Shown piece by piece: positions 4,017 to 13,000 of a stretch of 24,753 nt of DNA. The translations under genes and the position numbers were made by a program. The notes below the pieces were generated by a model. It ran no database searches and had not been told where the DNA came from. It saw only the letters and a program-made list of their open reading frames with translations. Source of the DNA: Saccoglossus kowalevskii (taxonomy: Eukaryota > Hemichordata > Enteropneusta > Harrimaniidae); NCBI RefSeq assembly GCF_000003605.2, contig NW_003158231.1, positions 31,787 to 56,539 on the forward strand, in the 5' to 3' direction. The first letter of the stretch is position 1; every line of letters starts with the position of its first letter.

Positions 4017-7000
4017 CTATCGAAAGAGAATGTATGAAAGATGAGTATGAGTAACAGCTGAAGGTCTGGTTTCTTGCTATAAATACCATACTTCCACAAC
4101 CACAAGCCCAGGGCCTCAACATGTGAAATAAGGGCTTTCCCTGGGGTGGGTTTAGACTTTTTTTTGGTTTATCATTGTAACCATTTGAGCACCAACGAAA
4201 AATTATCCAAATTACATCTTTTGTTTACCATGCCAAAGCTCGGGGGAATAATACGTCTTTTTGAAGAAAAAAAACAAGAAAAGTAGTCAGTAACATGTTC
4301 ATAAAAATACACAAATTTCATTACAATACGATTTACGGTGTAAAAAAAAGGAGTAGGGTCTGTGGGAAAACTGGCAAAGACAAAATCTTCATTATCTTTC
4401 TTGTGGGATAATTTTTATTCTAAACAAACTCTTTATGTAAAGTAACAACGGAAAGGGTTCGAACCATGTTGCGCACGTTCACCATGCACTCTGACATTAA
4501 TGTTGAGCATGAAACAAACAGTAACAATCACGACTTTTTAAATGTATACTTTAATAAATGTCGTCAACACTGGTCACTCTGTCCTTATAATTGGGGATGC
4601 TCTCAAATGTCTAGAAATAGAGGGGTGGGGTGGGGTGGGAGGGGCTTATGATCAGGGAAGTAGCGTAGTATTATTACTTTTCAACAAATAATGTACATGT
4701 TGCACAGTAAATTGAGATAACAGACATGAGAACAAGTCTATCTGCCTCTCACCCACAATACCATGCCTTAATATCCTTTCTTTTGACGACCTAAATTGTC
4801 ATTGTCATTCCACCAGATATATTGCTGGTAGGTACAACTACAACATAGGTGCTTTGAAGAAAGTTTTAGAGTGTGTATAGATTGAAAACATATTAACTCC
4901 CATTTGAAAATTTCTTCACCGAGTATGCACAAGTTTTGTTTTGTTTTGTTTTTCTTTGGAGCACATCTCCGATAAAAATGCATATAAAACCAAAATATGT
5001 ATTAGTTGTATATTGAATCTTTTACTTATTTGACCATAGATACATTTCTAATTCACATAAACAACATGCGTTACTAATAAAACATTTTTCAAATGTGGCA
5101 GTACAAACAAGAGGCATTCATTCTCGTACATAGTACTATAAGAGTAAACACGTCCAAAGAAAGTTTTGACTATCATACTTGCCTGTGAATGTAGTTTTCT
5201 CTATTGGTAGGCAGGTCATAGTTGATAACCAATGATACCTGCTGGACATCAATGCCACGTGCGAGTAGATCAGTGGTAATTAAAACACGACTGGAACCAG
5301 AACGGAACTCCCTCATAATAATATCACGTTCCTTTTGGTCCATGTCTCCATGCTGAAAAGAAATAATAGTCGACTTTGTTATGGTTTCAGCAAGATGCAT
5401 TGACAAAGCTCACTTGTTTGGTATTACTGTTGATATAAATGTTCCAGTACAAGTTACATGCACATGTCTATGGGTCCAATGCATCACCTGTATGTCTGTC
5501 AATGTGAATGCAGTATGACTAGAAAGAAGTGCATTGACAGTCACATTTCAAACCATGTCTGAAACAGACTAAAAACACACACATACCGCTTTTAAAAAGC
5601 AACCCAAATCAGCACTAACATTTCTGAATTGTTCCTTGCATGGTCTCTTTCCTCAGTAATGGTCACATAGTAACTCTGAGAAGGAGTGGGAATATGCAAG
5701 AATCTGTCCACACCACTGACATTATGCTGAAACATGATGACAGTGGGGACAAGATTGTTCTCCAACGTCATGGAATGGGAATATACATCATGCAAAATGT
5801 GCTCAGCTCCCGTACGCCACACTGACAGAGCCAAGTGAAGGCCAACCTCACTGGATGTCATCGTTGGAATTACAAGTCAGCTGTAATTTTAAACACCTAA
5901 TCTCCACTTTTTGGGTGGGGTTTATTACCGTAAAAGTTCTTTTTGAGGCCGCGGCTTTAATTAAAATTCATTTTTTCAATGGACGAATTCAGATGCGTGA
6001 AGTCTTGGTGCGGCTTTAATTAGAGCATTCACTTCGGTAACAGTGAGATTTTTTTTCAGAAAACAAAGGCCAGAAGGGATAATGATATGCTAATGAGATG
6101 CACAACACACGATTGCAACTTTGTTGCGATTCTAAGGCACTTTCGGATTTTTACACACAGACAAACTTGTACACAAACGAAATTTCACACTGTATAACAT
6201 AGTGCACAATAAATAATATCTACAAATAGATTTGTATGCATTTGCAGATTACGGTACTGTATTCTACAACTCTTGAATAGACTAATTCGTTAGCACCGGT
6301 CACTCTTTTAGTAACCGTGCAGACAGCCGTCTGACACAGTCAATTGTGGCATGTTCGACTTCCGGCAGAGTGACTGTACATTCCATGTTTAATCTAGACA
6401 TCGGGGAAATTAAAATAAAAAAAGTCAATCAAAAAAAAAAAAAGATAACGAAAAAAATACTCAGTATATTATTTAATGTAATTTATATTTATTTTCTTAT
6501 TTTTGATAATGAAAAGTATATATTCTAAAAGAAGTCAAAACAAAAACGAATGCATTCTTAGGAGCAAATGATCACGGTAACGGTCGTGCTGCGTTTCACA
6601 CAAGTGAATAACTTGCTTGTTTTCGAAGTGTTACGATTGCTGATTATTATCAGTAGTGATTACAATAATGCCCCAAAAATAAATTCATTGAATTGTTGTG
6701 AAAATTCAACTTAGTTTCACCGCAAGCGAATGACCTTGGTCACATAAATGCTCGATCCGATACGACATCCGCCATGTTAGTTCAAACATCTTTAGTGACT
6801 TGAAACTTATGTTGACCTGATAGGTCAAGTCGCTAATTAACCAACCGAAACGCTGGATGGTGCCAAAGTGATTAAATTACCATAGCTCATTTAAATTTGT
6901 TAAAGTAGTTCAGCGACCTCATGGTAAACGAAACACGGAAGAGATTTACCGTTGTTGTAGTGCGATCGTTTGGCTTTGATTTTGATGGGAAAACGGCATA

Positions 7001-10000: not shown

Positions 10001-13000
10001 AAGAACCCCGGGAGAACACGTTTAGTTTTTCGACAAGACGGTTAATTTACATATTAGAGAAGTGGGTATTAATTGATCACACGGACTCCGGATCACCATT
10101 TCTACTTTTGACCCTAGGGTGCCAAAATTATTAAAAACTTGCCTCTCTTTCCACATTGATATAGAATTGTCTAATACCCTCCAGGGTGAGTTCTTCCTTT
10201 CTGACAAGGATCCTAATTGGATCACGCATGAATTTCTTAGTCACTTCAAGCACATCAACTGGCATGGTAGCTGACAGCAGTATGACTTGTACGCTGTGAG
10301 GCAACAGCCTAAAGACATCATAGATTTGATCTTTGAAACCTCTCGACAACATTTCGTCAGCTTCATCCAATACAAAAATTTTTATATCGCTCACATCTGA
10401 AAGAGTTGAAAACAAATTTTTGTTTGATTTGTGAAGCACATAGGAATTTAATTTATTCAACCAAAAATTAACAATGTTCCTTGCATGGTCTCTTTCCTCA
10501 GTAATGGTCACATAGTAACTCTGAGAAGGAGTGGGAATATGCAAGAATCTGTCCACACCACTGACATTATGCTGAAACATGATGACAGTGGGGACAAGAT
10601 TGTTCTCCAACGTCATGGAATGGGAATATACATCATGCAAAATGTGCTCAGCTCCCGTACGCCACACTGACAGAGCCAAGTGAAGGCCAACCTCACTGGA
10701 TGTCATCGTTGGAATTACAAGTCAGCTGTAATTTTAAACACCTATGAGCCAACTCCATTTTTTGGGATGGGTGTTTATTTCCTCGTGAGCTCATCTCTTC
10801 CAAAACACAAATTAACTGTCATGTCAAGAAGTGTGGTTGGAGATATTGGACATAGTTTTACTTTTCCAAATTACTGTATCTGTGTGTATATGACTACCAT
10901 ACATGGGTAAGCTACAATGACCTGTTGACAATGAAAGGCAGTAAAGCGTACATTATCAGTAATTCAACTGAACAAATAAATGCCATCACGATTATTTCCT
11001 GGATAGTTGTTAGTACCGTAAAATCTGTATTAGAAGCCGCATCCATAATAGAAGTCGCACCCATTCTTTTTGAACAATTGAGAACCAAAAATTCACCATT
11101 TCTCATATGTGTAGACGCTCTAATAGAAGCCGTATCCTCTCTGTTGCATTGTACCATTTTAATAGAAGCCGCGGTTTCTAATACAGATTTTACAGTACTG
11201 GGTAAACCATGCAGACAAACATGGCAGAAATTGCTTTACATTGACTGCGCACAATCAAAGACATTCAACAGCAAAGATAATTAAGATCCTTTTTCTGAAT
11301 TCTGATGGTACATCAACAATGCAATATAAAATGTGCGCATGTGCAAATTTATTCTGCACATCTGTCCCCAAGAGAACTCAGGAAAAGGGTTCTTTAAAAT
11401 AGATAAATGTAAAGGAAAAATACACAAGCCAGTTTTGAATGTCGAATACTTACTTAGAGCTCTACGATTGATCATGTCATGCACACGACCTGGAGTTCCT
11501 ACCACCACGTGTTGCCCACTTTCAAGTTTTCGCATGTCCTCACGAACATTTGTACCACCAATACAGGCATGGCACTGAGCACCCATGTAATCACCTAAAG
11601 CAATCACCACTTTCTGAATCTGCAACAAAAGTTCTAATTATGATATCAACTACAATTGAAATCCAGCTTGAATAATAATCAAAACACCGAACATTTCTTC
11701 AAAAGGATATAAAAATTGCAGAGCAACAAGCAAAACTATTGTCATAAAATGTATCAAGTCACACAACATGAATGATTATTTGACCAATCACATGCAATAC
11801 AATCAAAAAAAAAAAAAAAAAACACTACTGAGCATTATGATGATGACCATAACATCAAAATCAAAATTTATTTTCACTGATATTTTACTATTTTGAGCAT
11901 ATTCACTGTTGTAATTTCACAAATTTAAGAAAACAATGTCATGTAGATTTAATATAGCGGATTTTATTTATCAGCGAAATTAAAACCCAGTGAAATATTA
12001 ATGCATTTACAGTAGTTTTGAAGCATGTTTTGGATGGCACTACTATACTAACCTGCTGGGCTAATTCACGTGTGGGGGCAAGAATCAGAGCCTGGCTGCT
12101 CATTCTTGTAATTTCCAACTGCTGCAGGATAGCAATTGAAAATGTGGCAGTTTTGCCAGTACCTGACTGGGCTTGAGCAATAACGTCTCTACCTGAAAAT
12201 AAATAATCCAAAACTTAATTCTGCTTTTCCTACTAAACTTATGTTTATGTCAAACAGTGACATGAATAATAAACTCATTTTTACATGCATACACCACACT
12301 TTTAAAGAGCCTTGTTGCCAAGTAGCAACAGAGATGCGCTTAGAATAGAGCAAATGCAGCTTCAACAAAACTGCCATTAACTAAATTAACTACTTTACAA
12401 TCAAAATTATTACACTGCTCCATTGTTGTTAGTTGTAAGTGATTTGTAGTACTATTGCACTACTACATGAACCATGTTAAATTGTTCCTTGCATGGTCTC
12501 TTTCCTCAGTAATGGTCACATAGTAACTCTGAGAAGGAGTGGGAATATGCAAGAATCTGTCCACACCACTGACATTATGCTGAAACATGATGACAGCGGG
12601 GACAAGATTGTTCTCCAACGTCGTGGAATGGGAATATACATCATGCAAAATATGCTCAGCTCCCGTATGCCACACTGACAGAGCCAAGTGAAGGCCAACC
12701 TCACTGGATGTCATCGTTGGAATTGCATTGTAACAAGACAGTATAGGTAATATGACAGAACCCCATGAAACCATGTTTGCAGGGTATGGAAGTTATTTTC
12801 ATGAGTGATGAGGTGTATCATGTGGTCGAGTGAAAATGCAGCATGAATACACCACATCACAAGTAAAAAATATATCCCATACTACAAAAATGTCAGGACA
12901 AGGCCGTGGGGTCTATTACACACATTTCCAGACTTTATAAAAATCACAGCGTTGTACATCTACGGCACCTACAATTTTTGAACAAGTGCAAGCAAAGTTT

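What the first reader, a model, noticed from the sequence alone, without database searches (positions are those of the whole stretch)
5627..12721. Three U17/snR30 snoRNA genes inside eIF4A introns 3, 5 and 7
Each copy has the CCAACG/CGTTGG-closed 5' hairpin, an AGAACA H box, the U17-specific m1 and m2 elements and a terminal ACA, in host orientation. U17 is the essential snoRNA for 18S rRNA cleavage. In vertebrates it is known from other host genes (the RCC1/SNHG3 region in human, ribosomal protein genes in frog and fish). A translation-initiation factor as host of three copies links ribosome production to initiation-factor expression. At about 242 bases it is longer than the ~207-base human RNA.
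Basis: partly seen in the sequence, partly recalled or inferred. Interest (0 to 1): 0.9.

Follow-up and report, generated by a model that had tools for sequence, protein, structure and literature searches.

The report
U17 snoRNA genes in eIF4A introns
Three near-identical copies of U17, a small RNA needed to make the ribosome's small subunit, sit inside introns of a translation-factor gene, probably of an acorn worm; the RNA and this kind of arrangement are already known, and only the host gene, the animal and small sequence details look new.

Summary
The finding holds. Rfam's SNORA73 (U17) model matches the minus strand full length at 12480-12720, 10472-10712 and 5627-5867 (122.7-129.2 bits, cut-off 74), the only places reported in the 572-Mb assembly. 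The host encodes a 425-residue eIF4A-I/II orthologue in nine coding exons; the copies lie in introns 3, 5 and 7, in host orientation. Each has a closed 5' hairpin, H box, large internal hairpin, 3' hairpin with m1/m2, and ACA. The mitochondrial contig points to an acorn worm of Saccoglossus type. Corrections: length 241, not 242; m1 (AUAUUCCCA) and m2 (AGACCAU) each carry one change absent from 14 tabulated species, yet 11 of 12 core pairs with yeast rm1/rm2 stay Watson-Crick and one becomes G-U. Several U17 copies in introns of one translation gene are known from frog, and eIF4A2 hosts other snoRNAs in chicken and human. So this is a new member of a known kind: new host and lineage, no new mechanism. 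Expression and pairing with the animal's own 18S rRNA are untested.

The parts
12480..12720 (-). U17/SNORA73 gene copy i3 (eIF4A intron 3), 241 nt
   Evidence: Rfam RF00045 129.2 bits, E 1.1e-31, model 1-219 of 219
10472..10712 (-). U17/SNORA73 gene copy i5 (intron 5), 241 nt; 3' end 75 nt upstream of exon 6
   Evidence: RF00045 122.7 bits; distance
5627..5867 (-). U17/SNORA73 gene copy i7 (intron 7), 241 nt
   Evidence: RF00045 125.3 bits
12615..12720 (-). 5' hairpin domain of i3 (equivalents 10607-10712 in i5, 5762-5867 in i7), closed by CCAACG/CGTTGG
   Evidence: fold z-score only -0.39 for the i5 copy
12609..12614 (-). H box AGAACA of i3 (10601-10606 in i5, 5756-5761 in i7)
   Evidence: fits ANANNA; unpaired probability 0.73-1.0 (i7 only)
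10547..10601 (-). internal hairpin of i5, 55 nt (12555-12609 in i3, 5702-5756 in i7)
   Evidence: -22.4 kcal/mol, z -4.80, 0 of 200 shuffles as stable (i5 only)
10480..10546 (-). 3' hairpin of i5 (12488-12554 in i3, 5635-5701 in i7)
   Evidence: z -2.70 (i5) and -3.08 (i3) for 76-nt stretches including the ACA end
10532..10540 (-). m1 AUAUUCCCA of i5 (12540-12548 in i3, 5687-5695 in i7)
   Evidence: core UAUUCC pairs 6 of 6 with yeast rm1 GGAAUA
10485..10491 (-). m2 AGACCAU of i5 (12493-12499 in i3, 5640-5646 in i7)
   Evidence: AGACCA pairs 5 Watson-Crick + 1 G-U with yeast rm2 UGGUUU
10475..10477 (-). ACA box of i5 (12483-12485 in i3, 5630-5632 in i7)
   Evidence: unpaired probability 0.87-1.0 (i7 only)
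3872..17158 (-). host eIF4A coding region: exons 17127-17158, 14094-14193, 13438-13570, 12053-12192, 11454-11619, 10143-10396, 7507-7644, 5183-5352, 3872-4016
   Evidence: joined CDS of 1278 nt, 425 aa + stop; DEAD 161 bits and Helicase_C 121.6 bits; eIF4A-I 747 bits vs eIF4A-III 633 bits
5868..5929 (-). 5' flank of i7, shared with the 5' flank of i5 (10713-10782): 59 of 70 alignment columns identical, the nearest 32 nt without a difference

Best explanation
These are three working U17/snR30 H/ACA snoRNA genes carried in introns 3, 5 and 7 of eIF4A. Pol II transcribes the host; splicing and debranching free the introns; H/ACA proteins bind, and exonucleases trim back to the CCAACG stem and ACA+3. 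The mature RNA of about 241 nt anchors on ES6 of pre-18S rRNA through m1/rm1 and m2/rm2 and supports the early 18S cleavages instead of guiding pseudouridylation. The copies arose by duplication within the gene and were kept alike by selection and/or gene conversion, giving extra dose from a housekeeping host. Shown: sequence, match to the structure model, position, orientation, copy relations. Inferred from the family: transcription, processing, exact ends, proteins, rRNA binding, function, host expression level.
For: Covariance hits at E 7.4e-30 or better, full length; the only reported copies in the assembly. The 3' hairpin and internal hairpin fold better than shuffles (z -2.7 to -4.8). 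The 4 i7/i3 differences fall at positions that are paired in both folds (one with a shifted partner), and i3 on i7's structure scores -72.4 against -73.0 kcal/mol for i7 itself. The RNAs are identical at 235-239 of 241 positions, while no similarity beyond shuffles was found in the 3' flanks or in either flank of i3. All copies are in host orientation, 75-287 nt from the next exon. The m1 core pairs 6 of 6 and m2 5 + 1 G-U with yeast rm1/rm2 (yeast sequence from PMC9176245).
Against: No expression data. m1 position 8 and m2 position 2 depart from 14 of 14 rows of Table 1 in PMC7601244. The animal's own 18S was not found (empty; searches failed), so pairing was tested only against yeast. The 5' hairpin folds no better than shuffles (z -0.39, 64 of 200 as stable). 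The single-strand fold closes part of the m1/m2 pocket.
Confidence: 0.93

Rival explanations
1. Some or all copies are non-functional duplicates, and a canonical, expressed U17 lies in sequence missing from the assembly.
For: m1 and m2 each carry one change against 14 of 14 tabulated species. No 5.8S or 18S was found in the assembly, so it may be incomplete.
Against: The three copies share the same m1/m2 and have intact boxes and hairpins; i7 and i5 are identical over 238 nt of RNA although the farther part of their shared 5' flank shows gaps and mismatches (59 of 70 columns); i7/i3 differences stay paired.
Confidence: 0.04
2. The conserved stretch is a repeated protein-coding exon: one forward frame is open through all 241 nt, and in i5 this frame runs on into exon 6 (ORF 10131-10721).
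For: Open frame in all three copies.
Against: 3 of the 4 i7/i3 substitutions are non-synonymous in that frame, and 6.65% of 2000 base shuffles also have at least one open frame; strong structure-model match; the eIF4A protein is complete without it.
Confidence: 0.01
3. A rival on origin only: copies spread by RNA-mediated insertion of a 5'-extended, 3'-trimmed precursor rather than by DNA duplication.
For: i7/i5 similarity includes about 60-70 nt of 5' flank but stops at the ACA end; i7/i3 similarity covers the RNA and about 4 nt upstream.
Against: No A-tail or clear target-site duplication seen by eye in the flanks. Old DNA duplication plus conversion or selection explains most of it, and within-gene duplication accounts for almost all snoRNA paralogues in chicken (PMC2653536).
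Confidence: 0.15

Closest known systems
Xenopus laevis U17 in the six introns of ribosomal protein S8 (review PMC7601244, passage; Table 1)
   Same: several U17 copies in different introns of one translation-apparatus gene, released from introns
   Different: host is a ribosomal protein gene; 222 nt; canonical m1/m2
Human U17a/U17b in U17HG upstream of RCC1 (same review)
   Same: U17 from spliced introns
   [quoted passage not shown] two copies; 207 nt; small internal hairpin
eIF4A2 as host of other snoRNAs: ACA4, an ACA56/E3-type RNA and an snR39B homologue in chicken (PMC2653536); SNORD2 among five in human (PMC10324135)
   Same: related host gene with several intronic snoRNAs
   Different: none of the snoRNAs named in the passages seen is U17
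Yeast snR30 (review PMC7601244)
   Same: m1/m2 logic, internal hairpin
   Different: 606 nt, independent capped gene; its 5' and internal hairpins can each be deleted

Membership tests
U17/snR30 (SNORA73) | match to the family covariance model above the curated score | tested here: met
   3 of 3 copies, 122.7-129.2 bits vs 74
U17/snR30 (SNORA73) | H box ANANNA and ACA box in single-stranded places | tested here: met
   boxes in 3 of 3 copies; unpaired probability 0.73-1.0 (AGAACA) and 0.87-1.0 (ACA), computed for i7 only
[quoted passage not shown]
   present in 3 of 3 copies with one substitution each against AUAUUCCUA/AAACCAU; the isolated fold closes part of the pocket
U17/snR30 (SNORA73) | pairing of m1/m2 with rm1/rm2 of 18S rRNA | tested here: inconclusive
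   11 of 12 Watson-Crick plus 1 G-U against yeast rm1/rm2; own 18S not found (8 and 10 failed)
U17/snR30 (SNORA73) | stable nucleolar RNA needed for 18S processing | not testable with these tools
   no RNA data or experiments available
Intron-encoded snoRNA of a translation gene | inside an intron, in host orientation | tested here: met
   3 of 3 between predicted coding exons, minus strand; no transcript evidence
eIF4A-I/II (host) | DEAD and Helicase_C domains, closer to eIF4A-I than eIF4A-III | tested here: met
   (747 vs 633 bits)

The most novel reading that the evidence does not exclude
In this acorn-worm lineage U17 and 18S rRNA have co-changed: m1 position 8 and m2 position 2, invariant in the 14 tabulated species, are altered, and an enlarged internal hairpin adds a lineage-specific contact to the pre-ribosome, while a translation-initiation helicase gene has taken over dosage of the RNA.
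Probability: 0.12. Interest if true: 0.45.

Novelty: new member of a known kind. Interest (0 to 1): 0.25.

Why it matters
It adds a probable hemichordate U17 and a new host gene to a set in which U17 moves between hosts (ribosomal protein gene, non-coding host, now eIF4A). It fits the view that U17 tends to ride on translation-related or growth-regulated genes. The two m1/m2 changes give a cheap, specific test of U17-18S co-evolution.

Tried and rejected
Own 18S/5.8S rRNA for m1/m2: the 18S family search failed twice; a 40-nt ES6 pattern, a 34-nt 3'-end 18S pattern, 5.8S RF00002 and a 229-nt 18S segment found nothing; itself warns that an empty answer shows nothing. I conclude only that the rDNA was not found here.

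Protein-coding exon: rejected. More snoRNAs: no other snoRNA family in the window at E <= 5, and no family at gathering score in 10 kb on either side. i7/i5 homology beyond the inverted-repeat element in intron 7: none above shuffles (110 of 300 shuffles scored as high).

A first idea, that the m1 change breaks rRNA pairing, was dropped: yeast rm1 is 6 nt (801-806), which leaves m1 position 8 outside the core. The m1 values printed were for a second AUAUUCCCA at nt 84 of the 5' hairpin; one search gives the right ones. The splice acceptor first used for exon 2 gave the wrong frame and was moved 7 nt.

Literature: searches (8 of 10 used). One search asked for the whole words U17, snoRNA, eIF4A, ribosomal protein and introns together (whole-word eIF4A leaves out EIF4A1 and EIF4A2): one paper (PMC7072173), whose passages do not put U17 in eIF4A. 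In one search the 20 papers listed of 471 hold no 'U17 snoRNA'. In one search, 20 of 89 are listed; six of them hold both SNORA73 and eIF4A and were not opened. I saw passages of eight papers (PMC7601244, with its outline and section 2.3; PMC9176245; PMC12095548; PMC10324135; PMC11175523, not used; PMC3121625; PMC2653536; PMC7072173) and only listings of the rest. Most subscription papers are not in this library, so absence from print is not shown. Atzorn 2004 and Cecconi 1994 were asked for by id and are not held.
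Full report
Observation. A scan of the whole window against Rfam 15 gives exactly three matches above gathering score, all SNORA73 (U17), all on the minus strand, all covering model positions 1-219 of 219: 12480-12720 (129.2 bits), 5627-5867 (125.3) and 10472-10712 (122.7), against a cut-off of 74. With a relaxed threshold (E <= 5) no other snoRNA family appears. A search of the whole own assembly (572,110,611 bases, 4830 contigs) with the family reports these three places only, and so does a DNA search with the i3 copy; the tool scores only the best candidates, so further copies are not excluded.

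Host. Nine coding exons on the minus strand (17127-17158, 14094-14193, 13438-13570, 12053-12192, 11454-11619, 10143-10396, 7507-7644, 5183-5352, 3872-4016) join to a 1278-nt reading frame of 425 residues plus stop. It has DEAD and Helicase_C domains and matches solved eIF4A-I at 747 bits against 633 for eIF4A-III. Six of the eight introns begin with GT and two (6 and 8) with GC; all end in AG (flanks). The copies therefore sit in introns 3, 5 and 7, in host orientation, 287, 75 and 274 nt from the next exon. The exons are predicted, without transcript evidence, and the numbering ignores any untranslated first exon.

Organism. The mitochondrial contig (17,037 bp) has 98 ATA, 50 AAA, 4 AGA and 0 AGG codons in 12 protein genes read with approximate starts (ATP8 was not examined). 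COX1 was identified by Pfam and COX2 by its PDB match; the other gene names are by eye, from recall. At sites I recognise as conserved from recall, ATA reads as Ile, AAA as Lys and AGA as Ser; both AAA codons of COX2 align with Lys of the best PDB match. The tRNA with a UUU anticodon (printed as Asn under code 9) is there, COX1 lies on the opposite strand from its neighbours and ND2 precedes ND1. PMC3121625 (passages) reports for Saccoglossus kowalevskii AUA = Ile, AAA = Lys, AGG absent, AGA = Ser, tRNA-Lys UUU, an inverted COX1 and a transposed ND1 or ND2. I infer an enteropneust of Saccoglossus type. The tRNA-Lys anticodon loop here reads CUUUUGA, not the CUUUUAA listed there, so the species need not be S. 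kowalevskii.

Anatomy of the RNA. Each copy is 241 nt by the Rfam match: 5' domain closed by CCAACG/CGTTGG (nt 1-106), H box AGAACA (107-112), internal hairpin (about 112-166), 3' hairpin (about 167-233) with m1 at 173-181 and m2 at 222-228, ACA at 236-238. Folded alone, the internal hairpin (i5) is far more stable than shuffles (z -4.80, 0 of 200 as stable), the 3' hairpin clearly so (z -2.70 in i5, 3 of 200; -3.08 in i3, 1 of 200), the 5' domain (i5) not (z -0.39, 64 of 200). Review PMC7601244 (section 2.3 read) lists animal U17 with stated lengths of 203-222 nt (one animal row only as >140) and says that human U17 has a much smaller internal hairpin than yeast. The extra length here fits an enlarged internal hairpin: a 17-nt insertion against the Rfam model lies in this stretch. 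The isolated fold of i7 pairs 2 nt of m1 with 2 nt of m2 inside the pocket and 2 more at the stem, so an open pocket is not shown by folding alone.

m1 and m2. All 14 rows of Table 1 in that review have m2 = AAACCAU and U at m1 position 8. Here all three copies have m1 = AUAUUCCCA and m2 = AGACCAU. In yeast rm1 is nt 801-806 and rm2 nt 836-841 (PMC9176245, passages), which I read from its construct numbering and primers as GGAAUA and UGGUUU. Against these, m1 keeps 6 of 6 Watson-Crick pairs and m2 keeps 5 plus one G-U. The animal's own 18S was not found (empty; 8, 10 failed), so whether it carries a matching change is open.

Relations between copies. i7 and i5 differ only at nt 239 and 241; i3 differs from i7 at nt 53, 69, 98 and 124, all transitions, and from i5 at six positions. 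In the predicted folds 53 goes G-U to A-U, 98 U-G to C-G, 124 A-U to G-U, and 69 stays paired with a shifted partner. i7 and i5 are identical over 270 nt, the RNA to its ACA plus 32 nt of 5' flank; farther out the flanks align with gaps and mismatches (59 of 70 columns for the whole near flank) up to an inverted-repeat element in intron 7. Beyond it, and in the three 3'-flank pairs and the i3 5'-flank pairs, no similarity above base shuffles was found; the nearest was the i5/i3 5' flank, matched by 27 of 500 shuffles. An identical RNA beside flanks that diverge soon after it points to selection or gene conversion. Reading the sequence as protein is disfavoured: 3 of 4 i7/i3 changes alter the amino acid in the one fully open forward frame, and 6.65% of 2000 base shuffles have an open frame.

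How it most likely works. As for U17 in frog and human (review passages): splicing of the host frees the introns, H/ACA proteins assemble, exonucleases trim the ends. The RNA then holds ES6 of pre-18S rRNA through m1/m2; a 2025 structure of yeast snR30 shows this pairing on the basal side of a non-modifying pocket (PMC12095548, passages). Here everything after the DNA is inference.

Comparison and novelty. Multi-copy U17 in introns of one translation gene is known (Xenopus ribosomal protein S8, six introns). eIF4A2 hosts several snoRNAs in chicken and five in human; within-gene duplication made almost all snoRNA paralogues in chicken. What I did not find in print, in searches of an open-licence library and mostly from listings, is U17 in an eIF4A gene or a described hemichordate U17. 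This is a new member of a known kind with a new host; the m1/m2 changes and the large internal hairpin are modest variants. The claimed coupling of ribosome production to eIF4A expression is plausible but not shown. An 11-nt pyrimidine tract starts 30 nt upstream of the eIF4A start codon, like a 5'TOP element, but 13 runs of that length or more occur on the minus strand of the window, so this is weak.

Noticed in passing
5923-7414: 39-nt inverted repeats, 90% complementary, bound a 1.5-kb element in intron 7 directly upstream of the U17 copy: probably a non-autonomous DNA transposon; the 5' flank similarity with intron 5 ends where it begins.
   Followed up: partly
11012-11199: Short element with 29-nt inverted repeats, 93% complementary, in intron 5; its ends resemble by eye those of the larger element in intron 7.
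   Followed up: no
8258-9880: Intron 6 stretch with similar-looking opposed ends (ACCGTACTTATCCGGG / CCCGGATAAATACGGT), seen by eye; it contains a sub-threshold histone 3' stem-loop match at 8621-8667, 30.3 bits vs 34.
   Followed up: no
10137-10142 and 5177-5182: Introns 6 and 8 of eIF4A begin with GC instead of GT (flanks gcaagttt and gcaagtat): two of eight introns.
   Followed up: no
670-879: Apparently the last exon of a replication factor C subunit (PF08542, E 1.1e-10), convergent with eIF4A.
   Followed up: no
5776-5784, 10621-10629, 12629-12637: A second AUAUUCCCA, identical to m1, lies in the 5' hairpin of every copy (nt 84-92); meaning unknown.
   Followed up: no
10131-10721: An open frame runs from the intron 5 U17 copy into exon 6, so a retained intron could encode an altered N-terminus; probably chance.
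   Followed up: partly
22610-22760 and 23860-24000: Diverged repeat of a roughly 150-nt sequence near the right end of the window, seen by eye.
   Followed up: no
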